Shown: piece after piece, positions 3,429-19,944 of the stretch
Layout: each line of letters begins with the position of its first letter
Numbering within the stretch: the first letter of the stretch is position 1
Origin: a virus
DNA length: 20,919 bases
Virus record (IMG/VR): IMGVR_UViG_3300007345_000371
Coordinates: 1 to 20,919 of that record
Direction: 5' to 3' (one strand)
Made by a program: the position numbers and the translations under genes
Notes under the pieces: model-generated
What the model was told of the DNA's origin: nothing
What the model saw: the letters and a program-made list of their open reading frames with translations, nothing else
The model's database searches: none

Positions 3429-4096
3429 TCAGTTAAACCTTTCCACATTTCAATTATTCTTGGATCTGGATATATATCAGCTTTATCGTATCTAACGCTG
3501 TTGTGAGTATAAACGCCAGGCTCAGCCATTAATGCGCGCATGGTAACATCCCATACGTCTTCATTGTAATCTAAAGGAATATTATAAGTCTTACTCCAGA
3601 ACAATAACAATTTACGAACACTTTCTATTTGTTCATCTGTGTACTTATGCCAGAACTTACTACCTCTATATTCTTCATCTAACGTACAGACTTCGTCTGC
3701 GTTTATATAATTGCCGTATATACTTTTAAACCTGCTCCCAGATGGTTCTAATGGTCCGTATGAACATAGTTCAATGCCTATACTTATTTTGTCTAACGAT
3801 ACATAAGGTAAACCTTTACTATCAAACACAGACTCTTTAAGTCCTAAGTGATACGCCCAATATAAAGAAGAAAACGCTTGCACAATAGATCCGTCTCTAG
3901 ATATGCAAACAGCAGTACCAACACGAGCTCTATCATTAGCCCAAATATCTATCGTGCGTTCACCTGTTGGTCCACCAACCGTATGGTGCAAATATATTTG
4001 TTTCTTTGGACTAGATTGCTTTATGTATTGATGCGGCTCTAGCGGATGTTGTTTTAAATTTAAATCATCTAGAGTTATCTCTATGTTATTGGCCAT
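3425..4096 (-). CDS. Endolysin: N-acetylmuramoyl-L-alanine amidase (Amidase_2 / PGRP fold)
   Basis: A 223-aa zinc amidase that cleaves the bond between N-acetylmuramic acid and L-alanine in peptidoglycan. Seen: first zinc-ligand region QIYLHHTVGG with H37/H38, YWAYHLG with H83, the central strand ISIGIEL with E109, and the last ligand region GVYTHNSVR (H198) followed by KADIYPDP, where D207 occupies the position of the usual terminal Cys or Asp ligand. There is no signal peptide, so export should depend on a holin. An insertion at about residues 111-150 (PLEPSGSRFKSIYGNYINAD onward) makes it longer than T7 lysozyme (151 aa). The start follows an A/T leader (AAGTAATAAATATTATATG) without Shine-Dalgarno, and a 25-nt space separates it from the structural genes, the widest in the block. 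Confidence 0.95.
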   Translation of the reverse strand: MANNIEITLDDLNLKQHPLEPHQYIKQSSPKKQIYLHHTVGGPTGERTIDIWANDRARVGTAVCISRDGSIVQAFSSLYWAYHLGLKESVFDSKGLPYVSLDKISIGIELCSYGPLEPSGSRFKSIYGNYINADEVCTLDEEYRGSKFWHKYTDEQIESVRKLLLFWSKTYNIPLDYNEDVWDVTMRALMAEPGVYTHNSVRYDKADIYPDPRIIEMWKGLTE

Positions 4097-4121: not shown

Positions 4122-5846
4122 TTATTTTACCCTTCTACCACCACCAACTCTTATTCCACTGCCAACCCTAGATCCAGCCTCGACTCTTCCACCGGTTTGT
4201 TTTTTCTTTTTGTCGTCTTGAATACCTAATTCCCATTCAGACCAACCGCCAAGTAGTGCCATTCTCTCCCACATTTCTAAGTCTTGACTGTATGCTGCAT
4301 CTATGTTATTTATTTTCTTTATAACACGATCTGCTGGTATGTTAGTTGTGGCAGATATTACATTTGCGCTTGCTAGCCAAGCTGGATTATCTAAGCTCCA
4401 ACCCATTTGTGACATCTCTTTTTTGTTCCACTGTACTTCGCGAGCTGCTTGATTTAATCTAGACAACTTTGAAGATATTGGAGGAGATATTTTTGTCATT
4501 TCAAACGCAACCTTCTCATAGTTTGGTCTTTTCTTTTCCGATTCTTCTATTGCTTTTAGCACTCCACCTTTTACAGTACTTGCAACAGCTCCACCAACAC
4601 CGATACCTCTTAGTATACCGTCTGCCATACCATTTGCCATACGCATATACTTTTCATCCATTTCTTCTTCGTCTTCAAAGTCAGCGGCAAATAACGCAGA
4701 TTGTATAGCGTTGAATATTATTCCTTGCACAGCGCCATAATAAAGTATTTTTGATATATTTACTTTAGCATCACCTCTTCCAGCTGCTAAATCCATGCTA
4801 GCTTTCTTTATGATACGAGCATACTGAGAAGGTGTATTTGCAAACGCTAGCACTATTCTACCTAATGGTCCAGCTTGCTGTTGAGATATTCTATCAGGTC
4901 TACTTGACTGTTGAGATTCTTCTGTTGCTTCTCTAAAATCATCAAATGCTTTTTGCTCCGCTTCGCTTTGACTTAATCCTTCTTTTAAATATGACTTAAG
5001 TCTATTTCTATAAAACGTAGCTCCGCCAGATGCAATAGCAAAACTATCAGCAAACTGTGTAGGTAAAAATCCTTTTTGAAGTATATAACTAATAGCACCT
5101 CTAACTCCACCTTTATTTGCCATTTCAGCAATGTCAGCTTCGTTTATGTTAATAGTTAAATTATTTCTACGCTCTTTCAAAAAGTCCGAATTAAATAAAT
5201 AAGCAAAGTCTTTCCAATACTGAGGTTGATTAGCAAATGCTGCAGATGCTTTCAATATATTATTGTCTGACCAGTTTATAAAGTTTACTGCAGATATAGT
5301 CTGAAGTAATGCTGATCTAGTATTAAAGAACATTATTGCACCAGTACTACCGTTGACCCAGTCTAAAAATCTACCCGTATTAGAATCACCATCGAAGTTT
5401 CTATTCTTACCAGACTTCATTCTTTTTAACATGTTCTCTAAAGCTTCTCTATAATTAGAACCATATGCTGCTTCTAGTTTATTTAAGTTCTGCTTAGAGA
5501 ATATTGCGTCAACATTGGCTTGCCATTGTTCTAAGTGCTTTGCTCTTTTAGTGATCTGCAGTCCAGCCATCAAGTCTGTAGTGATGCTACCAGCTAACCA
5601 ACCTTCATTAGGCCCTATGTAACCGTCGCCTTTGTTGATTGCTATTAGTTGATCTGCAAATACACGTAATTCTGGATTATTGAATACGTATTTAGTCATT
5701 TCGTTTAGATCTGACTTGCTCAAACCAGGTACTTCAAAACCTTGTTGATTCCAAATATAGATACGAACAGCTTGCTCTTTAGTGAAACCTTCGTTCGGTA
5801 TTTTCTTTCTTAAGTTTTTTGGAATTATCTTTAAGTTTTTCTTCAA
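4122..5846 (-). CDS. C-terminal piece of giant internal virion protein (gp16-like), separate frame
   Basis: A 574-aa frame read from TTG (5846-5844), overlapping the TGA of the 2056-aa gene by 4 nt. It begins LKKNLKIIPKNLRKKIPNEG and contains a long helical middle with Trp/Asn-rich blocks (ITTDLMAGLQ, AIMFFNTRSALLQTISAVNF, INWSDNN, AFANQPQYWKDFAYLFNSD). A hydrophobic segment near residues 367-385 (ILYYGAVQGIIFNAIQSAL) could span a membrane. From memory these blocks occur in marine phages at the C-terminus of one very long virion protein, fused to what is here the upstream gene. The last about 22 residues are a Gly/Arg tail with four spaced RV pairs. It may be translated by coupling at TTGA, or be cut off from the first part by a one-base change. 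Ejection/internal virion role inferred. Confidence 0.83.
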   Translation of the reverse strand: MKKNLKIIPKNLRKKIPNEGFTKEQAVRIYIWNQQGFEVPGLSKSDLNEMTKYVFNNPELRVFADQLIAINKGDGYIGPNEGWLAGSITTDLMAGLQITKRAKHLEQWQANVDAIFSKQNLNKLEAAYGSNYREALENMLKRMKSGKNRNFDGDSNTGRFLDWVNGSTGAIMFFNTRSALLQTISAVNFINWSDNNILKASAAFANQPQYWKDFAYLFNSDFLKERRNNLTININEADIAEMANKGGVRGAISYILQKGFLPTQFADSFAIASGGATFYRNRLKSYLKEGLSQSEAEQKAFDDFREATEESQQSSRPDRISQQQAGPLGRIVLAFANTPSQYARIIKKASMDLAAGRGDAKVNISKILYYGAVQGIIFNAIQSALFAADFEDEEEMDEKYMRMANGMADGILRGIGVGGAVASTVKGGVLKAIEESEKKRPNYEKVAFEMTKISPPISSKLSRLNQAAREVQWNKKEMSQMGWSLDNPAWLASANVISATTNIPADRVIKKINNIDAAYSQDLEMWERMALLGGWSEWELGIQDDKKKKQTGGRVEAGSRVGSGIRVGGGRRVK

Positions 5847-5851
5847 TGCTT
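5841..5851 (-). other. Frame junction between the two pieces of the giant virion protein
   Basis: On the minus strand the junction reads TAT AAG CAT TGA AGA. The upstream frame ends DYKH-stop. In the -1 frame, GCA TTG AAG AAA (A-L-K-K) leads straight into the downstream frame; just before it that frame has a TAA stop. Adding one base after AAG (AAG GCA TTG AAG) would give an uninterrupted DYKALKK reading. No canonical slippery heptamer precedes the junction. It is either a real split with TTG re-initiation or a one-base deletion in the genome or assembly. Confidence 0.7.
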
Positions 5852-8800
5852 ATAATCAGCAACCAATGACATTCTCTCATTAGCGATGTTATTCATTGCT
5901 CTAGCATAAGGGTCAATTAGGTTTTTCTTGTACCATGCCATTTGATTGTCACCTAACTTGCCTCTCGATAAAGTAGTGTATAGTAATCCAACAAAGTCTT
6001 CGGCTGACGGTGGTATAAAGAATTTATACTTACCCTTACTTGCGCCAACCACTTCTGCTTTCGCATCGCTGTACATTTTGTCAGCTGCAATGCCTGTCTT
6101 TGCTTCTAATATATCATTAAACTCTTTATCTAACTTGTCGAAAACATCTTTATATACGATGCGTTCTTTAGATTTAACGTCTAATACTTTCATCGCATCT
6201 TGAACTGCTTTTACATTTTTGTAAGCATCGTCAACAAAATAAAAATCATTATAACCAAGCGCTGCTTTTTCAACCATCCATTGAGCTTTAGCTTCTGGAA
6301 GACTATTCTGCAAGCCAGTTATATTTTCTAATGGTATCTCATACCCAACACCTTTTAAAAATTCGTATATTGCTGGTGCTGAATTTGCTGGACGAGCAGT
6401 TAACACGTATACGTCTTTATTGCCGAATTTATTTATTGCTTTTTCTAGCTTTGAAATTAAAGGACCAGGTTGACCATTTACCACTTTACTGAAATCACTA
6501 AAATCAAACACAGCGCCTTGCTCAGATAATGTGTCTCCTTGCTTGGCAAATTCGGTTGCGTCTATTTTTTTAGTCGTACCGTCTGGCATAGTTACGCCAA
6601 CCATGCTTTTGCTCGTTGCTAAAGTATCGTCAAAATCAAATACTGTAATACCTTTTCTTGGTGCTTTAGCATTTCTAGCATTAGCAATTGCTTTGTCTCT
6701 ATTTTTTAAATCGTTTAATAATTCGCTATTGTTTTTCGCTTTACTATAAGCTACTTTAATGTTGTTCTTAAATGCAACTTCTTTTTGCTTCTCTAATTGT
6801 ACTGTTGTGGCAAATCCACTAGAGTCTACATTATATTTCTCTAATATCGTTTCACCATCATACATTACTATCTCGCTTGGATTTATTCCGCCATTATTAG
6901 TCGCTACATTTTCATTAAAATATCTAGCAAATATATTATCAGTTATCTTCCAACCTTCTGGTGTCGATGCTATATAATTATAAGGCTTTCCGTTTGGTTT
7001 GAAACCCTTGAGCTTTTTGTCGTTGACCTTAGACAATAAACCTTGTTGATAATTATTTTTAATATTAACAAAACTTTCATCTAATGTGCCATCAAGCATG
7101 GCGCCAAATAAATACTTACCAACTAAGCTAGCTGGTAGCGTATGTTCTTCAACTACCACCTTGCCACCACCTGTTAGCGGTCTTCCATTTTCAACAGAAT
7201 AGAAATTTATAGGAGCAGATGTTCTAACAAAATGTGCCATGCTTTGGCTGGAACTAGAAAGTATGGCTGCTACGTACTTAGCGTTTTCTGGATTTTCGTT
7301 TATTAACTTTTCGAAAGCTTTAAATATTTTCCTTAAACCATTTATGCTTTGATCTTGTCTTTCTCTAAACTGCTTTGTGTTTATTTTTTCATCTAGTTTA
7401 GAATAACTATCTCTGCTAACTGCTGCAGTTATCTCAACGTCTTCAGGAGCAAAGCTCATTCCATCAATGTCGTTGTAAACTTCTTCCATGCTAACATAGA
7501 AGAAACCTCTTTTAGCTGCAGACGTACCAGCGTTAGCAAATGTTCCGCCAGTAAAGAAGCTCTTAGGCAAAACCTTTGTTAATTTTTCTCTAACAAACGT
7601 TCTAACAGATTCTATATCAGCTGCATCTTTAGAGCTTGGTAAAGTTAAATTCAAAGGCGCTAGTATAGCTTTCCAAACTTTGTTTTCAGCAGCAAACTCA
7701 TCAGAGCTTTTTTCGAAAGAATCATTTTGCATGAATACGTTCTTAGACTTTTGAACAGCTGCTTTAGAAAGCATAACGCGAGCTTTACCTGCAGCAACAT
7801 CTGCTAATTGCTTTTCTGTTGCTCCAGCAGATTTTAACTCTTGGCGAACTAAAGTATTAGCTGCTAACGTACTGTAAGTTTTAGCCATACCTTTTATCAA
7901 TTGACCTAGAGAACTTCTCAATTCATTCTTTGGAAGTATGTTCAATTCGCCTTTTGGTGTTATACCTATATCTAATTTTAATTTATCTATTGTCTCTTTG
8001 GATACTACACCCCTAAACTCTGGCTTTAATCTTCTAACTGGTACTTGACTGGTCAACCCTTTGCTTCTGCCTTTTGGACTAGTTAACTTACCGGATGGAT
8101 CAATAAAATCATCATAGAAATAATCAAGTATTCTTTTTGGTAGTCCTATGCCTGTACCTTGTATTGTTTTAGATACGTCTATGTCTTTACCTTCAACTCT
8201 AGCCTCTGGAGTTGCTATATTGTACTCTGGCAATATACTAACAAATTTATCTAAATTATCAGCTCTAAAAAAGAATTGCTGTATAGCTCTAGCTTCATTC
8301 ACAGATCCAAGGTTTGCCGATGCGTCAGTAATCTTTTTAGCTGGTATGCCTAATATCTGCTCACCAACTTCTCCTGCATATTTTTTTGAAACATTTTTAA
8401 ATGTTAGTCCCTCTCCTGGCTTATCAGATATAGTAACCTTGTCTGGAACTCCAGAAAATTTCAAAGGATTAATACTTGGTTTTTCTCTCGTTTCAACTGT
8501 TGCTTCTTCTTCAACAGTTTCAACATCAGCTATTTCTCTTACTGAATCGTCAATACTAGTTTGCTTTGCTTTTCTTTGAGATTCTTCGTATAAAGCTTTT
8601 TTCGCATCGCGCTTACCGAATGCTGTGTTTGCAAATATAAATTCACCAAAACCTTCTCTACCAATAGTTGAACCATCTTTACGCTTAGCTTGTGGATCAA
8701 AATTCATTAATCTATCAACAACAGAATCTATAGCTAGCTCAGCCTCCATAGGACTGCTTGATTTAGATTTTATGTAATTATTGATTACGCCGCCAGGCAT

Positions 8801-11800
8801 CATAACTGACTCATACACCTTAGTGAAAGATCTATCAGATAAAAACTGCTCTTTAGTTTCTATGTTTTCTGGTATTAGATTATTTATTTCTTCAAGAACA
8901 CTAGCTCTTGAATACTTGACGTCTCTTTCAGACACTCCTATACCTTTGTATACTTTATCTAAAAAGTCTTGTGGAAGGTCTTCTCCATAGTTTATAGACT
9001 CTGTGTTTATTTCGTAAAGCTTATCACCAAAGTCTTGTTTGTACTTAGCTAGACTTTCTTGAACTTGCTCATACGTTTTTGTGACTATTTTGTCTGGTAA
9101 AGATCTCTCTTTTCTAGCTCTATTTCTTTCTAATGCTGTTTCAAGTGGTGTATTAGCTACAACCATAGATACTTCAAATCCTGCGTCTTGAAGTTCTTTT
9201 ACTTTTTTCATTGTAGCATTATAAGAAGCGCCAGTACCATCTATCACCATATCGTTCTTATCCGATACGTACTTATTGAATTTTTCTTTAGCGGCTTTTA
9301 CTGCTGCAGCGCCAAGCTTTGATCTAGTTGACCTCTGTTCAGCAGTGTATTCAGATTCTTCAGTTGGAAGACCTGCTTCTTCTTTCATTGCCTCTAGTGC
9401 TATATCTTGGTTGACGACCTTGAAACCTCTTCTACCTAGCTTCAGGCCTTTGCCAACGTTAGTTTTACCGGCTCCTGGCCCACCAACCATAAATATGGCT
9501 TTTGGTTTTTCAGCTGCGGCTGCAGCGGATGCTTTAACTGTTTCAGTGTCAGTGTATAAACCTTCCTGTATTAATTTTCCTTTACCACCTTCAACAGCTA
9601 ATTTTGCTTGAGCTTGTGTTAAACCTCCTTCTTCTATGCTTTTATTATAATCTTTTATAAAGTTGTATACGTCTCTACCATTATTGAACTTTATATTAAC
9701 ACCAAAGTTTCTTTGTAAAGTTCGTCTAACTGTATCGCCTATTTTAGTAAAGGTATTTTCGTTGTATTTTATATCTCCTGTTGCTAGCGCATCAGAAAAT
9801 AATGTTAATGCCTCCTCCATTCTAACTTCTTTAGACTCGTCAGTGTATTGAAGCATTCTATTTTTAAATTCGCTGTTTTCTATTTTGTTTATGTCTATAG
9901 AGTTTAATCTTTTAAGTAGTGCATTACCAAGGCTTATAGCATTACTTGTATTTTTGTTTACAGTATTGAAAAGTATACCGTGCAGAAATTCGTGAGAGGC
10001 AACTGTTACTGCGTTATCTTTTAATGCTTGTTCTTTATTTAGTATTATTTGCTGCTTGCCAGTCTTACTATTTTGTATTATGAAACCTTGTTGACCGGCT
10101 GCTTTTTTTACATCAACATCATCACCAACACTGTTTAAGTACTCCTCTACTTCAGACGTTGTATCAAACTTTTTAATTTCAACACCTTCAACATCTCTAG
10201 CTGCTGATTCTACTTTTTTAGCGTTGTCGTTAAATTCGTTTTCTACTCTATTTCTAGCTGCGTTAGCTATAGCTAATTGTCTATCTTCTATGCTTACATC
10301 TACGTCAGCATCTATGTATGCATCACTTATCTTTTTTACTTTTTCTCTTAGATTAGCGATTTTATTTTTATTAGTCTCAGACTCACTACTTTTTAATTGG
10401 CTTATTTCACGCTCTAATCTTATTAAATCTGCTCTGTCATTTGCGTCAGATATTTTAGCATCTATACTTTGGTCTATCTTTATATCTTCTCTTCTATTGT
10501 CTACAATAGCCTTTATTACATCGTCGCCTTCTACGTCTATTCTAGCTTCTGTAAAAGCTATGTCATCCATTTTTTTAATAGACTCTGTAAACTCATTAAA
10601 ACCTAATTTCTGCCCATTTATCTTATATTTGCCATTAGCCGCTATAGCGTCAGTAGCCATACCCGCTATAGTAAATATCTTATCACCAGCTAAACCTTCT
10701 ATCAAGGCGTCCTTTGTATCGATCTCTTGCCCAGCTGCTATTTGACCGGCGTACTCAGAAGCTATCCCCATGGTTGTCTCTGTAGTTCCTCTCGCGATTG
10801 TTGGAGCTAATTTGGCAGATACTCTTGTTGTTGTTTTTGCTACTTTTGAACTTGCTTTGTACGCAGATCTTGTTGCTTTTTTTACAGCACCAGTTACTAC
10901 TTTACCTGTCCCTTGTGTTAATGCACCAGTGACAGCGTCGAAAGTACCTATAGCTATACCTCTTCTTAGCGCTCTATTTCTTAATTCGTTTTTCTTAACA
11001 GGATTGTTTAATATGTCGCTTACATAACTAAATCGTTGTTCATCGCCCATATTATCCCATCTAGTGCTAGCGCCTGAAGATATTAATTCCTTATCTATTT
11101 CATCTTTAAGTAAGTCAGCAGTCGTGAACCCAACTTCCATAGCACCAGAAAGACCACCTATAAAGCCTGCACCTCCGCCTACTATTGCTCCACCAGGTCC
11201 AGATACTAAAGCACCAGCTCCAGCTCCACCAGCTCCAGCTGAAGCAGCAGATGCTATTGCTTCTCCAGTCTGTACGCTAGCTGCCATGTTGCCTAGTGAT
11301 TGGCTAGCATACTGATGCATGATAGATGGATTCCTCCATGCTCCATAGAAAAATCCAGCAACAGGGCCATATTTTTCGCTCATTCTACTATAATCATCTT
11401 CAAATTGAAGCATTTCATCTGTTCCATGGAAGTTTTCTAGATTTCTAACATCTGACAAATATTTTTTTATTTCTTCATCTGTTGTGCCTTGTTTGAATAA
11501 TTCAATTGCACTATCAAACGATTCACCTTGAGCATATCCGCTTTTAAAAGACCTATATATGTCACCAAAGAAGTCAGTTGCGTTATTTTTACCAAACTTA
11601 CGCTCAAGCCATGTTAGGTCTTCTTCTTTTTCCTTTGCCTTTACTTTTATTTCTACTTGCCCTACACTTTGTACATTTATTTTTCCATCATCTGAAACAA
11701 TCAAACCCATACCTTCTAGATCAGACCTTGTTAATTCGCCAGAGGCAAATTGTCTTTCTAGCTCTGGCATATCTTTCATGCCTGGAAGTTCTATCTCTGT

Positions 11801-12013
11801 TTCTATGGTTCTATCTCGAGAAACCAAAGAACCATCTTCCGAACTGGAGACCATATCTTCGCTCGACCCTACACTTGTCTCCGCAGTTGCAGGATCTTGT
11901 TTCTTTTTTGGCGGATCTGTTGGTTCTTTAAATTCGTTATCTAGCTTGTAAAGAATCTCATCATCGTTAAATCCTTTGCTTATAAGGTCTTGTATGTATT
12001 CTCTTTTGTTCAT
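5843..12013 (-). CDS. Giant multidomain internal virion protein (gp16-like): HExxH peptidase motif, PNK/zeta-like kinase, HAD phosphatase
   Basis: A 2056-aa protein at the T7 gp16 position. Visible order: short helical start and acidic linker (1-110); Gly/Ala-rich hydrophobic stretch (about 250-290), possibly membrane-active; coiled-coil-like region (about 470-620); zinc-peptidase motif HEFLH at 674-678 in VASHEFLHGILF; P-loop kinase (about 838-985) with GGPGAGKT at 844-851, a VVNQD strand end, MVIDGTG and an Arg-rich lid (ERNRARKERSLPD) as in T4 polynucleotide kinase and zeta toxins; HAD phosphatase (about 1785-1955) with DFDDT at 1793-1797, T1872 in LTARP, K1909 and VDDA with D1928/D1929. 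All four HAD motifs are present, so catalysis is plausible. It is probably packaged and ejected, carrying enzymes into the host. The ATG follows ACAAATAAAATATAATG. The C-terminal piece lies in the next frame. Confidence 0.87.
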   Translation of the reverse strand: MNKREYIQDLISKGFNDDEILYKLDNEFKEPTDPPKKKQDPATAETSVGSSEDMVSSSEDGSLVSRDRTIETEIELPGMKDMPELERQFASGELTRSDLEGMGLIVSDDGKINVQSVGQVEIKVKAKEKEEDLTWLERKFGKNNATDFFGDIYRSFKSGYAQGESFDSAIELFKQGTTDEEIKKYLSDVRNLENFHGTDEMLQFEDDYSRMSEKYGPVAGFFYGAWRNPSIMHQYASQSLGNMAASVQTGEAIASAASAGAGGAGAGALVSGPGGAIVGGGAGFIGGLSGAMEVGFTTADLLKDEIDKELISSGASTRWDNMGDEQRFSYVSDILNNPVKKNELRNRALRRGIAIGTFDAVTGALTQGTGKVVTGAVKKATRSAYKASSKVAKTTTRVSAKLAPTIARGTTETTMGIASEYAGQIAAGQEIDTKDALIEGLAGDKIFTIAGMATDAIAANGKYKINGQKLGFNEFTESIKKMDDIAFTEARIDVEGDDVIKAIVDNRREDIKIDQSIDAKISDANDRADLIRLEREISQLKSSESETNKNKIANLREKVKKISDAYIDADVDVSIEDRQLAIANAARNRVENEFNDNAKKVESAARDVEGVEIKKFDTTSEVEEYLNSVGDDVDVKKAAGQQGFIIQNSKTGKQQIILNKEQALKDNAVTVASHEFLHGILFNTVNKNTSNAISLGNALLKRLNSIDINKIENSEFKNRMLQYTDESKEVRMEEALTLFSDALATGDIKYNENTFTKIGDTVRRTLQRNFGVNIKFNNGRDVYNFIKDYNKSIEEGGLTQAQAKLAVEGGKGKLIQEGLYTDTETVKASAAAAAEKPKAIFMVGGPGAGKTNVGKGLKLGRRGFKVVNQDIALEAMKEEAGLPTEESEYTAEQRSTRSKLGAAAVKAAKEKFNKYVSDKNDMVIDGTGASYNATMKKVKELQDAGFEVSMVVANTPLETALERNRARKERSLPDKIVTKTYEQVQESLAKYKQDFGDKLYEINTESINYGEDLPQDFLDKVYKGIGVSERDVKYSRASVLEEINNLIPENIETKEQFLSDRSFTKVYESVMMPGGVINNYIKSKSSSPMEAELAIDSVVDRLMNFDPQAKRKDGSTIGREGFGEFIFANTAFGKRDAKKALYEESQRKAKQTSIDDSVREIADVETVEEEATVETREKPSINPLKFSGVPDKVTISDKPGEGLTFKNVSKKYAGEVGEQILGIPAKKITDASANLGSVNEARAIQQFFFRADNLDKFVSILPEYNIATPEARVEGKDIDVSKTIQGTGIGLPKRILDYFYDDFIDPSGKLTSPKGRSKGLTSQVPVRRLKPEFRGVVSKETIDKLKLDIGITPKGELNILPKNELRSSLGQLIKGMAKTYSTLAANTLVRQELKSAGATEKQLADVAAGKARVMLSKAAVQKSKNVFMQNDSFEKSSDEFAAENKVWKAILAPLNLTLPSSKDAADIESVRTFVREKLTKVLPKSFFTGGTFANAGTSAAKRGFFYVSMEEVYNDIDGMSFAPEDVEITAAVSRDSYSKLDEKINTKQFRERQDQSINGLRKIFKAFEKLINENPENAKYVAAILSSSSQSMAHFVRTSAPINFYSVENGRPLTGGGKVVVEEHTLPASLVGKYLFGAMLDGTLDESFVNIKNNYQQGLLSKVNDKKLKGFKPNGKPYNYIASTPEGWKITDNIFARYFNENVATNNGGINPSEIVMYDGETILEKYNVDSSGFATTVQLEKQKEVAFKNNIKVAYSKAKNNSELLNDLKNRDKAIANARNAKAPRKGITVFDFDDTLATSKSMVGVTMPDGTTKKIDATEFAKQGDTLSEQGAVFDFSDFSKVVNGQPGPLISKLEKAINKFGNKDVYVLTARPANSAPAIYEFLKGVGYEIPLENITGLQNSLPEAKAQWMVEKAALGYNDFYFVDDAYKNVKAVQDAMKVLDVKSKERIVYKDVFDKLDKEFNDILEAKTGIAADKMYSDAKAEVVGASKGKYKFFIPPSAEDFVGLLYTTLSRGKLGDNQMAWYKKNLIDPYARAMNNIANERMSLVADYKH

Positions 12014-12019
12014 TATATT

Positions 12020-13894
12020 TTATTTGTTTCTTTCTTCTGCAAGTAGTATAGCGTTTTTATTATTTTTAGCAAACTCAACCCAGTGCGTAGCTCTTGAGCC
12101 AGGTCCATAAAGAGAAGGATTTGTAGCCGCGTAGTTGATCAACTCTTTCTTAGCCTTGCTACCTCCGTTATCAATAACCCAATTGAACCATTTGTTGTAT
12201 TTTGGATCTTCCAAGTCTTTTTTACCTTCTGTGGTAAAGTACTTTAGCATTTCATTTTTGAAGCCAGTACTTCTATAGTACGCAGCACTCTTGCTTGAGC
12301 CTGAAGCGCTCGGTGATACTATATTCCACATATTATTCATTTGTGCTGGATCGTATATGTTGAACGTTTTGTCTGGTTTTAACCACTCTCCATTAATTAT
12401 TTTGTCTTTGTATACGACTTTTATTTCTCCAGTGTTAGGATTAAACTCACTGCCTTCTACTTCTTTAGGAGCTCCACCTATGCTAAGTGTAAAGTTTTTC
12501 CCTGCTGGTAGATTCATAAACCTCGATGCGCCAACATCTTGTCTAGCTCTTGATCCAACCTGCGTCATAAACGAACTCATGTTTGCTCCAACTCTTTGCA
12601 CTTCACTGTTTATATCAGTTCTATCAGTTACAGTCTTAGTTGCTTGTTTTTCTTTCTTTTTTAGATTTATACCATCGTGAACACCTTTAGCTATAACGTC
12701 ATTAGTCATGAATTCAACTACAGACTGAAATTGAAATTCTTCTACAGTATCATATACATTTTGTATATCTCTGTTATTGATTATACCAAGCCTGCTTAAT
12801 TCTTTTATGTGTTGATCTATGCGATCATCACTGATTGGTAGGTCTAATATAGCTTTTAAATGGCCTTCAGCTTCCTCTTTTGTTTCTTTATCCTTTATGC
12901 TGTCAATACCTTCCACAACAGTCGATCCAAAGTCTATAGATCCAAACAACTCTTTTTTTGTCTTAGTATATATTGTTTGACCAGGCGCTATATCGTACGG
13001 TATTTTAACTAAATTACTAAATGCGTTATCTATAAAACCATCCTCTCTAGATCCAGTAGAATCGTTTTGCTGTATAACTTGCAAACTCCTTAATCGCTGC
13101 TCCGTGAAGTCTCTAACTACTTTTTCGCCATTTATTAATAAGTCTTCATTTGATAACTTAGCATCGTTTATTTTGTTTTTTATATCAGCATTAGCTGCGC
13201 CTTTTATTGTTTCAGATGTCGATGTAAATTGGTCTATTACAGGTTGTATATCTTTAAGCGTCATTAACTTAGCTTGAAGAACATCTACGGGCATACTAGA
13301 ATATCTTGTGCCATCTTCACTTACTATATTGCCGTTAGGATTTGGAAACGTAACTGTACCACTGAAGCTATCGTTCTCTGCATTCAAAGATAATGCTGCG
13401 TCTGGATTTTTAGAGAAATAATCCATAGCCAATTGAGTGGTTGCCCAATCTTCACTAAGTCTATTTGTATTCTTATATTTTTTAAAATCAACAGCATACT
13501 CAGAAATAGTATTAAGCGCGTTGATTAATCCTTTCGCGCTAGAAGTAGCTTTGTTTATTTGCGCCGCCGAAGGCCCAGTTGCTCTTGCTGATGCTACTCT
13601 TGTTAAAAAGTTGTCACCTTGTCTTTGTTCGGTAGCAGCAGAACTTCTCATCCAATTAGTTGTAGTGTCTAATAATTTATTTTGAACTGATCCAATTAAA
13701 TTTTTAGACTTATATATAGTATCTTCTATCTTTTCGCCTTGCTCTACTACGTTTCTATTTTTAGCATTTATCTGCTCTCTAACTTTTGATATGTGATCTT
13801 CGACTGACCTATAACCAGCTTCAAATGATTTGCCAAAACTCTTAGCAAATGCTAATGGATCTCTAGTATATATGTCTGGATTGCTATAACTCAT
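12020..13894 (-). CDS. Internal virion / ejection protein, gp15-like by position
   Basis: A 624-aa, mostly helical and polar protein, rich in Asn, Lys and Asp, with no signal peptide or membrane segment. The N-terminus (MSYSNPDIYTRDPLAFAKSF) leads into a long coiled-coil-like region at about residues 25-130. A beta-containing part sits at about 455-520 (GKNFTLSIGGAPKEVEGSEF). No enzymatic motif was found. It lies between the 233-aa gp14-like gene (1-nt TAATG overlap) and the giant protein (6-nt gap), the slot and approximate size of T7 gp15 (747 aa), so it is inferred to be part of the internal core or ejectosome. Assignment is by synteny and general composition, not by a recognised domain. 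A different virion role, such as a tail-associated structural protein, cannot be excluded. Confidence 0.72.
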   Translation of the reverse strand: MSYSNPDIYTRDPLAFAKSFGKSFEAGYRSVEDHISKVREQINAKNRNVVEQGEKIEDTIYKSKNLIGSVQNKLLDTTTNWMRSSAATEQRQGDNFLTRVASARATGPSAAQINKATSSAKGLINALNTISEYAVDFKKYKNTNRLSEDWATTQLAMDYFSKNPDAALSLNAENDSFSGTVTFPNPNGNIVSEDGTRYSSMPVDVLQAKLMTLKDIQPVIDQFTSTSETIKGAANADIKNKINDAKLSNEDLLINGEKVVRDFTEQRLRSLQVIQQNDSTGSREDGFIDNAFSNLVKIPYDIAPGQTIYTKTKKELFGSIDFGSTVVEGIDSIKDKETKEEAEGHLKAILDLPISDDRIDQHIKELSRLGIINNRDIQNVYDTVEEFQFQSVVEFMTNDVIAKGVHDGINLKKKEKQATKTVTDRTDINSEVQRVGANMSSFMTQVGSRARQDVGASRFMNLPAGKNFTLSIGGAPKEVEGSEFNPNTGEIKVVYKDKIINGEWLKPDKTFNIYDPAQMNNMWNIVSPSASGSSKSAAYYRSTGFKNEMLKYFTTEGKKDLEDPKYNKWFNWVIDNGGSKAKKELINYAATNPSLYGPGSRATHWVEFAKNNKNAILLAEERNK

Positions 13895-14595
13895 TATACA
13901 GTTGTATTAGGTGTATTAAATGCACTTGCCCAATTTGTATCTTTCGCGTAAGCACCAAGTCCTACTCCGCCTGCAGCACCAAGTGCGCTACCTAGCGAAC
14001 TCCAAGCAGCATCTTTATATTGTGCAGTTTGTCTATTAGCAGCATCTAATTGTGCTGCGGCTCTATCTATGTCTTGTTGCTTTCTACTTTCTTTTATGCC
14101 GAATTCGTATTGCGCAGCTCCTATTCTAGCTGACTCAACTCTTCCAAGTTCTGCTAATCTAGCTTGCTGAGCTGCTTGAGCACCTTGTGCTCTTGCTGCA
14201 ACGTTAGATGCCTCTTGTCTAGCTATATCAGCTCCTATATCTCTCTTACTTCTTAATGCAGCTTGCGCTAAACTAGTAGCACCACCAGATCCGAATCCAC
14301 CAGCTCTTAACGTATCTAAAGTACCCGCTAAAGACAAGTCAGTTTCTTCTGCTTGATATTTCGCCGCCTCTGTAGATACTTGTAAGTTTGCCATCTCGTT
14401 TTGAATTAATGAACTTCTATCTTGAATCATACCTCCTAAATCAGGTATATCAGGTCTCTGTGATAACGCTACTCTAAGTTGCTGGTCTAATTTATTAGCT
14501 CTTTCTTGAGACTTCCAACCTTGATAAGCTGAAGTAGCTGCTCCTATTAAACCACCAACAACTTGAGCTCCAGCCGTTGCTAAAAATGCTGCCAT
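13894..14595 (-). CDS. Internal virion protein, gp14-like
   Basis: A 233-aa Ala/Gln-rich protein. A glycine-containing hydrophobic N-terminus (MAAFLATAGAQVVGGLIGAA) is followed by a long amphipathic helical region (about 25-195; AARAQGAQAAQQARLAELGR), then a second Gly/Ala hydrophobic stretch SSLGSALGAAGGVGLGAY near 198-215. Two membrane-active ends around a helical middle is the pattern of podovirus ejection proteins such as T7 gp14 (196 aa), which form a channel in the outer membrane for DNA entry. It lies directly before the gp15-like and gp16-like genes, as in T7. The start follows TTAAAATATAAATAATATG with no Shine-Dalgarno. Similar Ala/Gln-rich proteins are frequent in marine podoviruses. 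Role inferred from composition and synteny. Confidence 0.78.
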   Translation of the reverse strand: MAAFLATAGAQVVGGLIGAATSAYQGWKSQERANKLDQQLRVALSQRPDIPDLGGMIQDRSSLIQNEMANLQVSTEAAKYQAEETDLSLAGTLDTLRAGGFGSGGATSLAQAALRSKRDIGADIARQEASNVAARAQGAQAAQQARLAELGRVESARIGAAQYEFGIKESRKQQDIDRAAAQLDAANRQTAQYKDAAWSSLGSALGAAGGVGLGAYAKDTNWASAFNTPNTTV

Positions 14596-14600
14596 ATTAT

Positions 14601-15971
14601 TTATATTTTAATTTCGTTTGATACTGCATACAACTCTGCTTTATATCCATTACCAGTTGCTTCATGATATAACATATCTATTTCAGCATGATAACCTTTT
14701 ATTCCTAGTGTTGTATTAAATGTGTTAGAATTAAATGTTGCGTTTTGATTTGCCAATGTGTAAGGAACTTTTTGCTTTAGATCAGCATAATATTTACTTT
14801 CTCTTAGTTTGAATCCTATATCTATAGCCACCCCATTTTCATTTAATATAGTTACACCTTTCTTAGGTATTTTATATGCTTCTTCTTTTTGCGAATCTTC
14901 TATATAACCGTCTTTAATCACCCTTTCTGCTTCTGCTCTATCCATGCTCCAACCTTTTGATCCTTCGTAGTTTATAGTCATAAACGTCTTGGTTTCGCTA
15001 GAGCCATCGTTCATTATTAATGTTATATATGACGGATCATTGAATTGAGAGTTATAAAAATTGTTATACTTACTACCTTTATAGTGTTTATATATATTAG
15101 TTTTGTTAAACGTATAAAACTGGTTTCTCACGCTTAAGCCAAATGTAGGTTTGTAAGAATAAAAACTCACCCAACCATTACTGTTTTCTGAAAACCCTAA
15201 AGTAATAAACCCTGTAGCTGTAGAATAGTTTGGACTATTAGTACTTTTTTTACCACCACTTATGGAACTATGTTGTATAGATACAACATACTCGTCATGC
15301 CTAGAGTCATACATGCCATATATCTTTCCTATTTCTCCACCACCAAAGTAATCACTAGATACAAGCTCTAAGTTATCTCTAAAAAAATCTATCATACCAT
15401 AGTCTGATATTTTTTCTAATCCATTCTGTGAAAGTCTTAGTACTGCTCCTCTAGATTTATCTACAAAGTATTTCCTATTAGCATAATATGCAAAACTTTC
15501 TGGATTGTCAGATATACCAAATTTACCTGTGTATGGTACTATTTCTCCAATAACTCTAGCCCCAGTCGACGTTAATCCAACGCCTTCAGCTGTATATATA
15601 GCATCTTTATCTATAAGGGCTTTACTAACTTTATGCTGTTGAAATATATTTAAATTTGTATCTTCAGCATGTAATTTTTGTATGCTACCATTTGAAACGT
15701 CAACTGCCCTAGTAATAGATTCGGCTATTGAGAACTCGTTTGTTCTATTTGTTTTGGTCTTAGAGTTGAATACCCCAGAATAAATCATGGCATTAGATCT
15801 TCTTCTTATACCATAATCATTATCAGTAGCATATGCTCTAGCTCCATAATCAGTGCTAATGCCGTTATAATCTCCTTTTATTCTAGACTCTTCAACGTGC
15901 CATAATCCAGGTATTCTTCCACCTGTTAGTATAAAAGAGTTATAATAACATATTTCTATTTGTTTAGCCAT
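14601..15971 (-). CDS. Tail structural protein, probable nozzle/spike-associated beta-rich protein
   Basis: A 456-aa beta-rich protein. Recognisable stretches are LNIFQQHKVSKALIDKDAIY (about residues 106-125), GKFGISDNPESFAYYANRKY with FVDKSRGAVLRLSQNGLEKI (about 150-190), YGMIDFFRDNLE, and GWVSFYSYKPTFGL then NQFYTFNKTNIYKHYKGSKY (about 260-300). These phrases recur, from memory, in long structural proteins of marine podo- and myoviruses. The repeated blade-like pattern (VLRL..G..KISDYG, KIYGMYDSRHDEYVVSI) is consistent with a beta-propeller. The gene starts 1 nt after the stop of the 1323-aa gene and may be a separated C-terminal module of that protein. There is no frameshift sign, because it has its own ATG after TAGAAATATAAAATG. 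Exact place in the tail unknown. Confidence 0.75.
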   Translation of the reverse strand: MAKQIEICYYNSFILTGGRIPGLWHVEESRIKGDYNGISTDYGARAYATDNDYGIRRRSNAMIYSGVFNSKTKTNRTNEFSIAESITRAVDVSNGSIQKLHAEDTNLNIFQQHKVSKALIDKDAIYTAEGVGLTSTGARVIGEIVPYTGKFGISDNPESFAYYANRKYFVDKSRGAVLRLSQNGLEKISDYGMIDFFRDNLELVSSDYFGGGEIGKIYGMYDSRHDEYVVSIQHSSISGGKKSTNSPNYSTATGFITLGFSENSNGWVSFYSYKPTFGLSVRNQFYTFNKTNIYKHYKGSKYNNFYNSQFNDPSYITLIMNDGSSETKTFMTINYEGSKGWSMDRAEAERVIKDGYIEDSQKEEAYKIPKKGVTILNENGVAIDIGFKLRESKYYADLKQKVPYTLANQNATFNSNTFNTTLGIKGYHAEIDMLYHEATGNGYKAELYAVSNEIKI

Positions 15972-15972
15972 T

Positions 15973-18900
15973 TTATATTTCTATGTTTTTTATCACGCTA
16001 GTTACAAGTCCATCTGAGTTTACAGTTGCTAATCTATACGTAGTAGCACCTGGCTCTAAAACTTTGTAAGTACCAGCTGGTGCTGTTTCGCTTGACGTTA
16101 ATAAGTCTGTAAAAATTACATGTCCAACATCTAGATTTACAAATTTATTATTATCGTTTACAATACCTAAATACCATGGTATTAACTCTGGTCCTGTGTT
16201 TTGTGCAACCCAGTACAATGTATAATCTCCATCATTGTAAGACATTTGACTAGAAGTAAAACTTTCTGTTACTTCATTTATAGGAAAAGATATGTCTTTT
16301 TCTGCACCATATTCATCAAGTATAGTTATTGTCATAGTCCTATTAGCTATTGAGTCGTTGAAAAACGCTTCTATCGCGCTGTCATTCCAATTACTTGTAG
16401 TTCTTATTGTTATTTCACCATCTTTTATATCTCCATCAAAATAAGAGTTATAATCGCTATTAGCCATAGTTACTACCATGCTGATTCCAATTCTATTATT
16501 ATCGACTCCAGTAGTAACTAAGCTACCATTGTTTACTAATAAACCATCTAAAACTACATAGTTGTTTATACCTAAGTTAGGAGCTAGTCCTTCAGTAGGT
16601 GTTGATTCAAATGCTGGTTTAGAGTTTCTTATTTTAATTTTAAAATCTTTAGATAAAGAGCCAAATTCACTGTCAATAGCATTTATTTTTACTATTACTA
16701 TATCTTCATTGTTGTTTTTAAACTCTGGCATTATGGCATCTGTTTTTAATTTCCATGTGCTATCAGCCGGGTCTAACTCTACCTCAAATAACTCAGTAGC
16801 ACTAGCTCCACTAGCTAAAAACGTAGCTCTACTTAATGAAAAAGAAAGCGTGCCAGAAGAAGTAGGATCTAATGTAGCGCTTAAATCTCCAACGTATGTG
16901 CCAGACGGCGTATTCTCATATACATATATTACATCTCCCCATTCATCGTTTGCATCGCCATCTATCAACTCTGGTAAAGGGTATTGATCAGCAAAAACAC
17001 CTGTAGAGTAATCGTCTTGTTTTAATGTAAAGCCAGTAGGTAGATTTTCAAAGCTAGCATCAACTTCTTCGACTAAATCTCTTAATAGACCACTAGTTGA
17101 AGTTTCGTAATATATTTCAATTTTAGATTCAAAGGGTTCTGTTTCAAAAACACTTAACCCTTCGTAGTACTTACTAAACACCAATTTGTCACCTTGCGCT
17201 ATTGATTGATTTGAAGATAACGTAACGTATGGTCCTGATCCAGACGATGCAAAAGAATCTAATACAGTTATCTGCTCATTATGCTTTGGTGAAGTAACAT
17301 TCAGAGAGAAGTAATTTAAGTCATCATCAGAATAAGTAGCGTTGTCACCCTGTTGGTTTTCTGCTATTGTCAAAGCAGATGAAGATGTGTCAGCTTTAGC
17401 ATAATATACAAATGATTTATTATTGCTATTTGAACCTATATATGCTTTCATGTTTTTCACTTCAGCCACTAATGGATTTTTATTTTTTCCATAGACAAAA
17501 TCAAAAACAGTAAATCCGCCTGTTCCAGAATTATTGTCATCGCCTGACATGAATAAGTTTTGTTCATAGGCATTACCTAGGCTAATGACTTCAAGTAGCT
17601 CTGTGGAAGATGAATTAAGCTTTGATTCACCAGATAAGTAGTATAAGTCATCTTTTGTTAGCGTTATTACTACGTCGCTTGCTCCGCCTAAGTTGAATGA
17701 TATTGTTTCACCTGTTTTGAAACCTTTCCCGGTAGTTAACACCTCGACAGATATGGCGGTTTCTGTTGCGTCTACTATTATTTTAAACTGTGCATCTACA
17801 CCACTACCACTGTATGTAACACCAGAGTCACCAATCGTTTTTGTATATGGAGATCCACTCTCAGCTATGCCAGATCCTGCATTTGTTATACCTATGTCCC
17901 CAAGTTTTATTCCTCCATATTCACTATCAAATATGATTTTAGGAAATAACCTCACATCAGATCCCATTGTTCCAGGCCTATTAGTATCATTGCTGTTTAA
18001 CGATCTAGGAATTTTATTTATATTATCGCCATGCAATGATAGCCAACTTCTACCACCGGTCAGTGAATCTTGTGGAGACTCCTTTATGTTATCCCAACCA
18101 TCAAATGGATGTGGAGTGTACACGTTATAATAGTCTTGTTGCTGTTGTTTAACTACTAGTCTATATGAATACCATCCATGTGGATTATAACTTCCACCTG
18201 TTGCATCTAAATAAGTAGCCCCAGGCCCAAAGTTCATATCTGCAACGAATTTATCATCGCCACTAATTCCTTTCTCTAAAAAGCCAATAGCAAGAGATTT
18301 ACCAAACGCATCGTTAGAGCTCCAAGCCCCATCAGCATTTGCTTCAAAAGTATTATTTACTGCTCCAACTGTTATAGTGTCAGCATTCGGTAGTTCGTTT
18401 GACGATAATATTACTGGTGATTGTCTTCCAAATATATCGCAAAAAACTATTCCAACTTGATACGTTCTTCTTTGCTTGACTGTGTGATACTTATAAGTTC
18501 TATGCATCCACTGTTTTAGTCCGTCTAAGTATGGCTCGCTAGCGTCTATGCCACCAGACAAATCATAAGTGCCTTTAGTGACAGACTCAACGTTATAGTT
18601 TATACCTTTTCTACCATTGTTGTCTTTTGGATATTCATAATTTTCAACGTAGTTTCCAAATATAACTCTGTTGCCAGCTATATCCATTGCTTTTGCTAAT
18701 ACTGGCACTTGATCTGTAACTCTGTTTATTTCGCTTTCTGGTAGAACTTTAGTTGGCTCTCCAGAAGTATATTCATATTTTAAGCATTGTCTTTGATACG
18801 GGCTTCCAGATGATACAGGTCTTACTGTGTAAGATTCTATTGCGTCACTTGGATACTTTAAATCTTTTATTTTTACGCTTTTTATAGATTTAAATGAAAT

Positions 18901-19944
18901 ACCATTTGACTCTTTTAGCAAAATCTCAACTTCATCTATATGGAATGGATTTTCATAAACACCTGTAGAATATGGCGTTGTTGTAAATTCGTTTTTATTT
19001 GGTAAAGGTATTCTAAATATTATTTTATTTATTCTATTCTGCATTATATCTACAATGCCTTTTTTGTAAACCTCTTTTTTTCCAGTGAGAACTTGAGGTT
19101 CTCCAGATGTTTCATTTATCTCATCGTCAGTTAAACTGTTTGTTATAATACCTTTGTTTAGTGGTTCAAATACAGATTGCGTAAAAGGTGCTATTAGTGA
19201 ATATTCTCCATCGCTGTATTTGTACCTGTAAGAAAATCTAACAAATCTCTCTTTTAAATACTCTGATTCAACATCTGCGTTTCTAGAAATACCAACGACA
19301 CCATTGTCGGAGTGTAACATTATTGGCTTGTATGGAGCATATTTTGCTAAACTTATTGTCTCTTCTCTATTATAGTATGTATGCCCGTTGTCTAGTGCAG
19401 TTTTTATATTTATTTTTCTTGGTTGGTTTAAATTATCAGTCCAAAATAACAAATCTTCTATTATTTGTACACCAGTTATTAAGTGGTTTTTACTAAAGTT
19501 CAAAAAAGTTCCATAACATAAAGTTCTATATACATCTTCTTTTATGTCGTACAGTATTATAGCACATCCATAATTAGATGGATCATCATTAAAATCATAA
19601 TCCCAAGCTCTATCTATAGATCTAATATTGTCAGTATAAGAAGTACTAGAAAAGTTGGTAACAAAGTATACTACTCTATCATTACTTAAGTCCTCGCAAT
19701 AACCTATAACTTCATACTCTGATGTATCTGTATTTCCAGGAGTAGATCTTATTGGCAATGTAGGTGTTATGTTATTTCCAAGCTTTACATTTCCAATTAT
19801 ATTTTCAATTGCACCAACGTCAGAACCTTCTGACTCTGTAATGTGTATGTTCTGAGCTTCTCTATACTCACCTTTTGGTATTAACCTCTCGTCGAGGTCT
19901 TTATTCATTTTACCTTTAATGAAGTTTTGTTTTATTTCAGGCAT
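15973..19944 (-). CDS. Large tail nozzle/stabilisation-like structural protein with cadherin-like domain
   Basis: A 1323-aa protein. The N-terminus FIKGKMNKDLDERLIPKGEY then REAQNIHITESEGSDVGAIE is a hallmark of phage neck/tail proteins in the role of T7 gp12 or P22 gp10. A long beta-rich middle follows (residues 60-500, propeller-type strands such as VVYFVTNFSS), then SYRLVVKQQQQDYYNVYTPH at about 595-615. A cadherin-like Ig domain lies at about 1005-1108: VYENTPSGTYVGDLSA at the start, the KTDAIMPE region, and DFKIKIRNSKP at the end. A second beta domain runs at about 1109-1225. The likely role is closing the portal channel and forming the tail nozzle, with the cadherin-like part exposed for surface adhesion. 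It follows the adaptor-like gene by 7 nt. Leader TTAAATAATAATTAAATG. Family by remembered resemblance; placement by synteny. Confidence 0.83.
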   Translation of the reverse strand: MPEIKQNFIKGKMNKDLDERLIPKGEYREAQNIHITESEGSDVGAIENIIGNVKLGNNITPTLPIRSTPGNTDTSEYEVIGYCEDLSNDRVVYFVTNFSSTSYTDNIRSIDRAWDYDFNDDPSNYGCAIILYDIKEDVYRTLCYGTFLNFSKNHLITGVQIIEDLLFWTDNLNQPRKINIKTALDNGHTYYNREETISLAKYAPYKPIMLHSDNGVVGISRNADVESEYLKERFVRFSYRYKYSDGEYSLIAPFTQSVFEPLNKGIITNSLTDDEINETSGEPQVLTGKKEVYKKGIVDIMQNRINKIIFRIPLPNKNEFTTTPYSTGVYENPFHIDEVEILLKESNGISFKSIKSVKIKDLKYPSDAIESYTVRPVSSGSPYQRQCLKYEYTSGEPTKVLPESEINRVTDQVPVLAKAMDIAGNRVIFGNYVENYEYPKDNNGRKGINYNVESVTKGTYDLSGGIDASEPYLDGLKQWMHRTYKYHTVKQRRTYQVGIVFCDIFGRQSPVILSSNELPNADTITVGAVNNTFEANADGAWSSNDAFGKSLAIGFLEKGISGDDKFVADMNFGPGATYLDATGGSYNPHGWYSYRLVVKQQQQDYYNVYTPHPFDGWDNIKESPQDSLTGGRSWLSLHGDNINKIPRSLNSNDTNRPGTMGSDVRLFPKIIFDSEYGGIKLGDIGITNAGSGIAESGSPYTKTIGDSGVTYSGSGVDAQFKIIVDATETAISVEVLTTGKGFKTGETISFNLGGASDVVITLTKDDLYYLSGESKLNSSSTELLEVISLGNAYEQNLFMSGDDNNSGTGGFTVFDFVYGKNKNPLVAEVKNMKAYIGSNSNNKSFVYYAKADTSSSALTIAENQQGDNATYSDDDLNYFSLNVTSPKHNEQITVLDSFASSGSGPYVTLSSNQSIAQGDKLVFSKYYEGLSVFETEPFESKIEIYYETSTSGLLRDLVEEVDASFENLPTGFTLKQDDYSTGVFADQYPLPELIDGDANDEWGDVIYVYENTPSGTYVGDLSATLDPTSSGTLSFSLSRATFLASGASATELFEVELDPADSTWKLKTDAIMPEFKNNNEDIVIVKINAIDSEFGSLSKDFKIKIRNSKPAFESTPTEGLAPNLGINNYVVLDGLLVNNGSLVTTGVDNNRIGISMVVTMANSDYNSYFDGDIKDGEITIRTTSNWNDSAIEAFFNDSIANRTMTITILDEYGAEKDISFPINEVTESFTSSQMSYNDGDYTLYWVAQNTGPELIPWYLGIVNDNNKFVNLDVGHVIFTDLLTSSETAPAGTYKVLEPGATTYRLATVNSDGLVTSVIKNIEI

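What the first reader, a model, noticed from the sequence alone, without database searches (positions are those of the whole stretch)
6149..9505. PNK/zeta-like kinase and HAD phosphatase carried on one ejected virion protein
Residues 838-985 hold a P-loop kinase (GGPGAGKT, IDGTG, Arg-rich lid ERNRARKERSLPD). Residues 1785-1955 hold a full HAD motif set (DFDDT, LTAR, K, VDDA). T4 Pnkp combines the same two activities, in the same kinase-then-phosphatase order, to heal RNA ends cut by host defence nucleases. Here the pair is separated by about 800 residues inside a protein likely injected with the genome, so end-healing or nucleotide phosphate editing could begin at the moment of entry. Alternatively the kinase is a zeta-toxin-like enzyme attacking a sugar nucleotide. 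This is the best candidate in the window for an undescribed system.
Basis: partly seen in the sequence, partly recalled or inferred. Interest (0 to 1): 0.7.

Follow-up and report, generated by a model that had tools for sequence, protein, structure and literature searches.

The report
Swappable kinase in phage cargo protein
A giant protein that a marine bacterial virus probably carries in its particle holds a real kinase and a real phosphatase, and in about 30 related viruses the same kinase sits inside the phosphatase, at a site where other domains have also been inserted.

Summary
Both domains are real. P0001 (window 5843-12013, minus strand, 2056 aa) has a PNK/zeta-like P-loop kinase (Pfam AAA_33 5e-15, Zeta_toxin 1e-12) and a HAD phosphatase whose catalytic aspartates are kept in all 213 distinct relatives. 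The gene lies beside crAss-type muzzle genes, where isolated flavophages encode giant virion proteins, so it is probably a virion-packaged 'polyvalent' protein. The T4-Pnkp reading is not established: most relatives have the HAD without the kinase; L124 and L151 have the kinase without the HAD; the Arg that T4 and Clostridium kinases use (R38/R41, from general knowledge) is Leu; and no RNA-ligase family passed its cut-off in 40 related contigs. The unexpected result is that in about 30 viral contigs the same kinase is inserted in the HAD itself, at the flap hairpin after motif I (the C1-cap site). AlphaFold models both folds (pLDDT 88). The kinase tree places the window's upstream copy among nested copies. 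The HAD tree needs at least 8 kinase gains or losses. Unrelated inserts, one resembling an ADP-ribosyltransferase, use the same site. I read this as a known kind of protein with an unreported insertion hotspot, not a proven end-healing enzyme.

The parts
5843..12013 (-). P0001, 2056 aa: main part of the giant polyvalent protein; in relatives it is one frame with P0002
   Evidence: fused in L001 and the other relatives
4122..5846 (-). P0002, 574 aa: conserved C-terminal part, split off by a 1-base frameshift near 5851 that is absent from L001
9518..10306 (-). conserved region, residues 570-832, with HEFLH (674-678): putative zincin metallopeptidase (motif-level only, no Pfam hit)
   Evidence: HExxH-like motif in nearly all untruncated relatives
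8903..9517 (-). inserted kinase cassette, residues 833-1037
   Evidence: absent from L004, L005, L006, L013, where residue 832 joins about 1038 directly; present in L082 at the same place
8984..9508 (-). PNK/zeta-like P-loop kinase domain, residues 836-1010
   Evidence: Pfam AAA_33/Zeta_toxin; profile hits zeta 1.3e-6 and T4 PNK 2.6e-6 in PDB
9461..9484 (-). Walker A GGPGAGKT, residues 844-851
   Evidence: kept in 33 of 34 distinct giant-protein kinases
6089..6676 (-). HAD phosphatase domain, residues 1780-1975
6623..6637 (-). HAD motif I DFDDT, residues 1793-1797
6566..6586 (-). HAD flap hairpin tip, residues 1810-1816: empty here, holds the kinase or other inserts in relatives
6392..6403 (-). 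HAD motif II LTAR, residues 1871-1874
6287..6289 (-). HAD motif III Lys, residue 1909
   Evidence: invariant in 52 of 52
6227..6232 (-). HAD motif IV Asp-Asp, residues 1928-1929
   Evidence: invariant in 52 of 52
12020..13894 (-). P0003, 624 aa, positional match to the phi38:1 virion protein gp100
   Evidence: synteny
13894..14595 (-). P0004, 233 aa, positional match to the phi38:1 virion protein gp99
   Evidence: synteny
14601..15971 (-). P0005, crAss muzzle C-terminal domain (PF25729)
   Evidence: E 2.8e-11; phrog_14478
15973..19944 (-). P0006, crAss muzzle protein N-terminal part (PF25731)
   Evidence: E 4.8e-13; tblastn to Cellulophaga, Flavobacterium and Tenacibaculum phages

Best explanation
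P0001+P0002 is a virion-packaged polyvalent cargo protein of a marine, crAss-related phage of the flavophage type. Proposed mechanism: it is stored in the particle and leaves through the tail with or before the DNA; a built-in zincin-like protease may cut it; independent catalytic domains then act in the host cytoplasm. One domain is a cap-less HAD phosphatase, near-universal in this protein family. The tip of its flap hairpin, where C1 caps sit in other HADs, is a recurrent insertion site. A PNK/zeta-like kinase cassette usually occupies that site when it is present, and in the window's lineage it has moved about 950 residues upstream. The kinase and the HAD most likely add and remove phosphate on nucleotide-type substrates (nucleic-acid ends, nucleotides or nucleotide signals) during entry. 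Shown: the domains, the insertions, the conservation, the gene order and the repeated gain or loss of inserts. Inferred: packaging, ejection, self-cleavage, substrates and benefit.
For: Domains. Kinase nested at the HAD flap in about 30 contigs: motif I-II spacing 275-280 aa instead of 77-80. AlphaFold places the kinase between the two flap strands, pLDDT 87.8, pTM 0.76. Empty upstream site in L004/L005/L006/L013. Kinase tree: window and L082 copies form a 100/100 clade inside nested copies. HAD tree: at least 8 gains or losses of the nested kinase forced by well-supported branches. Other inserts at the same site. Virion context: muzzle neighbours and the same order (ring protein, muzzle, about 200 aa, about 450-550 aa, giant 'structural protein') in Cellulophaga phi38:1 and Flavobacterium elemoA. 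crAss001 carries cargo proteins in its virion (PMC10172136). Polyvalent proteins as an injected class: PMC5512222.
Against: No proteomics for this virus. Direct homology of P0001 to phi38:1 gp101 is weak (BLASTP E 0.11), so virion location rests mainly on gene order. The zincin is a motif-level call. The HAD matches no PDB chain by sequence. The many kinase changes on the HAD tree could be losses rather than gains, and a direct test of kinase/HAD tree conflict was not significant (AU p 0.14).
Confidence: 0.62

Rival explanations
1. Pnkp-like end healing: the kinase phosphorylates 5'-OH ends and the HAD removes 3'-phosphates from RNA or DNA cut by host defence nucleases, as in T4 Pnkp, from the moment of entry.
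For: The kinase profile aligns with the whole T4 PNK kinase domain (PDB 2.6e-6; hhalign 2.6e-8). Top Foldseek hit of the nested model is T4 Pnkp, E 6.8e-8. The HAD matches PHROG 'polynucleotide kinase' family 415. P-loop Lys, base Asp and lid Arg (T4 K15, D35, R126) are kept. The nested form physically couples the two activities.
Against: T4 R38 (and, from general knowledge, Clostridium thermocellum Pnkp R41) corresponds to Leu or another non-Arg residue. T4 phosphatase R176 has no conserved equivalent. The HAD occurs without the kinase in most relatives and the kinase without the HAD in L124/L125 and L151. ART-like inserts replace the kinase. No RNA_ligase (PF09414) above cut-off and no RtcB in 40 related contigs, whereas jumbo-phage PNK/HAD repair enzymes generally go with RNA ligases (PMC7824862). 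Contigs may be incomplete, and the PF09511 search had no working control.
Confidence: 0.2
2. The kinase is a zeta-toxin-like enzyme acting on sugar nucleotides such as UDP-GlcNAc, as suggested for zeta-like kinases in other polyvalent proteins; the HAD is unrelated to it.
For: Pfam Zeta_toxin above cut-off. Best PDB profile hit is zeta toxin, 1.3e-6. The [D/E]GTG motif is zeta-like. The polyvalent-protein paper proposes this role for zeta-like kinases (PMC5512222).
Against: Of the UNAG-binding residues listed for zeta (E100, T118, R120, T121, T128; PMC4938570), R120 is Ala (30 of 32 cassettes matching the motif; the other two Asn) and T121 is Ser. The lid RNxxRxERSLP is PNK-like. No antitoxin-like partner was examined.
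Confidence: 0.13
3. The HAD flap is only a permissive surface loop. Inserted domains sit there because it tolerates them, with no working relation to the phosphatase.
For: Different inserts (kinase, ART-like, 46-aa helical, others) use the same hairpin tip. A second insertion region follows HAD motif IV in L182/L272. The window keeps kinase and HAD apart, both under purifying selection.
Against: The kinase cassette is found nested in HADs from many clades, and its ancestral state appears to be nested, which is at least compatible with selection for the arrangement.
Confidence: 0.35

Closest known systems
Polyvalent proteins of phages and conjugative elements (Iyer et al. 2017, PMC5512222)
   Same: Giant multidomain protein encoded beside virion genes; zincin-type motif plus disparate enzyme domains including a zeta-like kinase; cassette-like shuffling of domains
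   Different: A HAD phosphatase, and effectors nested in it, are not mentioned in that paper's main text
T4 polynucleotide kinase-phosphatase (PseT/Pnkp)
   Same: P-loop kinase plus HAD phosphatase on one polypeptide; shared P-loop Lys, base Asp, lid Arg and HAD motifs
   Different: Kinase is inside or far from the HAD rather than in tandem; acceptor Arg R38 and phosphatase R176 not kept; located in a giant cargo protein; no RNA ligase above cut-off in related contigs
Zeta toxin / PezT
   Same: P-loop kinase fold, [D/E]GTG motif, base Asp
   Different: R120 replaced by Ala; PNK-like lid; part of a virion-associated protein
Crassvirus virion cargo proteins (phi-crAss001 gp45-gp50, PMC10172136)
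   Same: Muzzle-adjacent genes for very large proteins stored in the virion and thought to be ejected
   Different: crAss001 giant cargo is RNA-polymerase-associated; here the recognised enzymes are a kinase and a HAD phosphatase
Cellulophaga phage phi38:1 gp101 and Flavobacterium phage elemoA gp21
   Same: Same position after the muzzle genes; annotated as structural proteins
   Different: Sequence similarity to P0001 is very weak (phi38:1) or was not examined (elemoA)

Membership tests
Polyvalent proteins | Multiple unrelated enzyme domains on one polypeptide | tested here: met
   kinase and HAD, plus an HExxH motif
Polyvalent proteins | Encoded among late virion genes | tested here: met
   muzzle genes next door; synteny with phi38:1 and elemoA
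Polyvalent proteins | Zincin-like metallopeptidase domain | tested here: inconclusive
   HEFLH at 674-678, HExxH-like in nearly all relatives, but no Pfam peptidase hit in P0001
Polyvalent proteins | Delivered into the host with the DNA | not testable with these tools
   needs virion proteomics and delivery assays
T4 Pnkp family | Kinase residues K15, D35, R126 (T4 numbering) | tested here: met
   aligned and conserved
T4 Pnkp family | Acceptor-binding Arg R38 (T4) / R41 (C. thermocellum) | tested here: not met
   D-x-x-L-E here; no Arg in 34 distinct giant-protein kinases
T4 Pnkp family | HAD phosphatase with DxDxT, T/S-x-R, K, DD | tested here: met
   T4 R176 equivalent not conserved
T4 Pnkp family | Tandem kinase-phosphatase order | tested here: not met
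   about 770 residues apart in the window; nested in relatives
T4 Pnkp family | 5'-kinase and 3'-phosphatase activity on nucleic-acid ends | not testable with these tools
   biochemistry needed
Zeta toxins | UNAG-binding residues T118, R120, T121 (PMC4938570) | tested here: not met
   DGTGAS: T118 kept, R120 to Ala, T121 to Ser
HAD superfamily phosphatases | Four catalytic motifs and Rossmannoid fold | tested here: met
   (phosphoserine phosphatase top fold hit, E 0.009)
HAD with C1 cap insert | Folded domain inserted in the hairpin after motif I | tested here: met
   met in about 30 relatives; not met in the window itself, where the flap is empty
ART-PolyVal (insert of L158 and others) | Pfam ART-PolyVal above cut-off or ART fold match | tested here: inconclusive
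   only family hit repeatedly, E 9e-4 to 0.12, below cut-off; Foldseek to tankyrase/KptA E about 0.5

The most novel reading that the evidence does not exclude
The HAD phosphatase of these giant phage proteins is a dedicated acceptor whose cap position is filled with interchangeable catalytic domains (kinase, ADP-ribosyltransferase-like and others). Each virus would thereby deliver a different paired 'write/erase' enzyme, with the inserted enzyme acting as a catalytic cap that sets the phosphatase's substrate.
Probability: 0.2. Interest if true: 0.8.

Novelty: new variant of a known kind. Interest (0 to 1): 0.55.

Why it matters
Phage proteins that enter with the genome act before any phage gene is expressed, and few have known activities. 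Here a conserved phosphatase carries a defined insertion site that takes different enzyme domains in different viruses. That gives a natural way to find early-entry effector domains by reading one short loop across hundreds of marine phage genomes. It also gives a compact construct (about 400 aa, confidently modelled) in which kinase and phosphatase activities and their dependence on each other can be tested directly.

Tried and rejected
Kinase-HAD co-occurrence as evidence of a functional pair: rejected, because the HAD is so common in this family that finding it in 29 of the 31 giant-protein kinases of the tree is close to the base rate; only the nesting is informative. PDB sequence search with P0001 and with the HAD profile: nothing useful. 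tblastn of the HAD, the N-terminal region and P0003 against named phages: no match. RNA ligase search: PF09511 had no working control and is uninformative; PF09414 gave one sub-threshold hit, in a HAD-only contig. Foldseek on the ART-like nested model: no hit below E 0.001, so ART is tentative. AU test of kinase/HAD tree conflict for L109: p 0.14, not significant. First motif-column script for the HAD failed and was redone with patterns.
Full report
What is in the window. The window is a 20,919-base fragment of an IMG/VR virus record. All the large genes relevant here are on the minus strand. P0006 and P0005 match the crassvirus muzzle protein and its C-terminal domain, and P0006 matches structural proteins of Cellulophaga, Flavobacterium and Tenacibaculum phages. 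Next come P0004, P0003, P0001 (2056 aa) and P0002 (574 aa). In relatives P0001 and P0002 are one frame. In the window a single-base difference near 5851 splits them, and a 99.5% identical contig, L001, has the uninterrupted frame. I cannot tell a real mutation from a sequencing error.

The kinase. Residues 836-1010 pass the Pfam cut-offs for AAA_33 and Zeta_toxin. A profile of twelve relatives finds zeta toxin (1.3e-6) and T4 polynucleotide kinase (2.6e-6, across the whole kinase domain including the lid) in the PDB. The P-loop, the base Asp (D870) and the RNxxR lid are kept in essentially all 34 distinct giant-protein copies. The position of T4 R38 is never Arg; the pattern is D-x-x-x-E. That R38 binds the acceptor is from general knowledge of T4 Pnkp. 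The zeta residue R120, listed as UNAG-binding in PMC4938570, is Ala in 30 of 32 cassettes matching the motif and Asn in the other two. The kinase therefore belongs to neither family by its substrate-binding residues. Relatives about 35-40% identical occur mostly as roughly 260-aa standalone proteins in other phages.

The HAD. Residues 1780-1975 carry all four HAD motifs. They are invariant in 52 aligned relatives, and the motif I aspartates and the motif IV pair are kept in all 213 distinct copies examined, two of them with small variations in neighbouring letters. Single-sequence searches are weak, but 32 of 34 relatives match PHROG 415, best 8e-9, and the fold matches HAD phosphatases. Comparing P0001 with L082, non-synonymous change is 0.06 (kinase) and 0.14 (HAD) of synonymous change, with synonymous sites near saturation.

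The surprise. Searching with the kinase alone found L082, with the kinase in the same place as the window, and L083-L091, where it lies inside the HAD. A second search with the nested domain raised the number to about 30 contigs from many metagenomes. The distance from motif I to motif II is 77-80 aa in plain HADs and 275-280 aa in the nested ones. The insertion is at the tip of the flap hairpin: plain YTMPDG-T-GKL, nested YTVPN-[kinase]-KVGKVDA. This is the position where C1 caps are found in other HADs (general knowledge). AlphaFold models the L086 nested domain with mean pLDDT 87.8 and pTM 0.76, the kinase (46-233) lying between the two flap strands. Its top Foldseek match in the PDB is T4 Pnkp (E 6.8e-8), but with a large rmsd, so the relative placement of the two domains is not shared.

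History of the cassette. In the kinase tree, rooted on standalone relatives, nested copies branch first, and the window and L082 copies form a 100/100 clade among them. The upstream position in the window therefore looks derived. Close relatives without the cassette (L004, L005, L006, L013) join residue 832 to about 1038 directly. On a tree of 97 HADs, the nested kinase needs at least 8 gains or losses on well-supported branches. Kinases are on average more alike than their HADs (0.74 vs 0.65; L109 vs L097 0.91 vs 0.53). This fits transfer, but strong constraint on the kinase would also contribute, and a direct test of tree conflict for L109 was not significant (AU p 0.14). Gains and losses cannot be separated with these data.

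Other inserts. The same flap site holds a different domain in about ten further HADs, for which Pfam ART-PolyVal is the only repeated match, below its cut-off (E 9e-4 to 0.12). A confident AlphaFold model (pLDDT 86) did not give a significant ART match, so that label is tentative. A 46-aa helical insert and several single cases also occur there. In L124/L125 and L151 the kinase stands where the HAD should be, and the HAD is gone.

Virion context. The order ring protein, muzzle, about 200 aa, about 450-550 aa, giant protein is the same in Cellulophaga phi38:1 and Flavobacterium elemoA, where the muzzle and the giant protein are annotated as structural. phi-crAss001 carries very large cargo proteins in its particle (PMC10172136). 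Direct similarity between P0001 and phi38:1 gp101 is only E 0.11, so packaging is an inference from gene order.

What it probably does. The nearest described class is the polyvalent proteins of Iyer et al. 2017, which include zeta-like kinases and are thought to be injected (PMC5512222). The kinase and HAD most likely act on nucleotide-type substrates early in infection. The specific Pnkp reading would predict end-directed activity and, by analogy with jumbo phages (PMC7824862), a linked RNA ligase. No RNA_ligase (PF09414) hit above cut-off and no RtcB was found in 40 related contigs, and one ligase family search had no working control. These contigs may be incomplete. I therefore put end healing at 0.2, a zeta-like role at 0.13, and give substantial weight to the flap being merely a tolerant site (0.35). 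These are alternatives about function; the architecture itself I hold with high confidence.

Noticed in passing
window 5843-5851: A one-base difference from L001 splits the giant gene into P0001 and P0002; intact copies exist in relatives.
   Followed up: partly
window 14601-19944: The crAss-type muzzle is split into two ORFs: the N-terminal part matches P0006 and the C-terminal domain P0005.
   Followed up: no
window 1143-1826, 751-1143, 3425-4096: A PhoH-like gene, a small putative metallopeptidase (DUF6782/M78, below cut-off) and an N-acetylmuramoyl-L-alanine amidase lie downstream of the cargo genes.
   Followed up: no
L158, L266-L270, L273, L275: A 131-139 aa ART-PolyVal-like domain occupies the same HAD flap site as the kinase; weak family and fold support.
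   Followed up: partly
L182, L272 (after HAD motif IV); L328 (flap): A second inserted domain (SRxKLYxxL..LGW pattern) is found after HAD motif IV in L182 and L272 and at the flap in L328, with a short duplicated 'DVKSxxQ' stretch beside the L182/L272 copies.
   Followed up: no
L075, L077, L080: These relatives keep only the C-terminal half of the HAD, without motifs I and II and with the DD pair lost, perhaps a non-catalytic remnant.
   Followed up: no
record of L119 (G014), 9888-10325 and 22862-23293: This contig has two AAA_33 kinases in two giant open frames on opposite strands.
   Followed up: no
L176-L178, L180, L181: Contigs of this virus type sit in MAGs labelled Aliivibrio, Ilumatobacteraceae and Woesearchaeota; probably binning of viral contigs.
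   Followed up: no
HAD domain family (alignment A4): 31 of 34 HAD relatives weakly match DUF2608 (best 3e-6), a Pfam family of unknown function that may be HAD-related.
   Followed up: no
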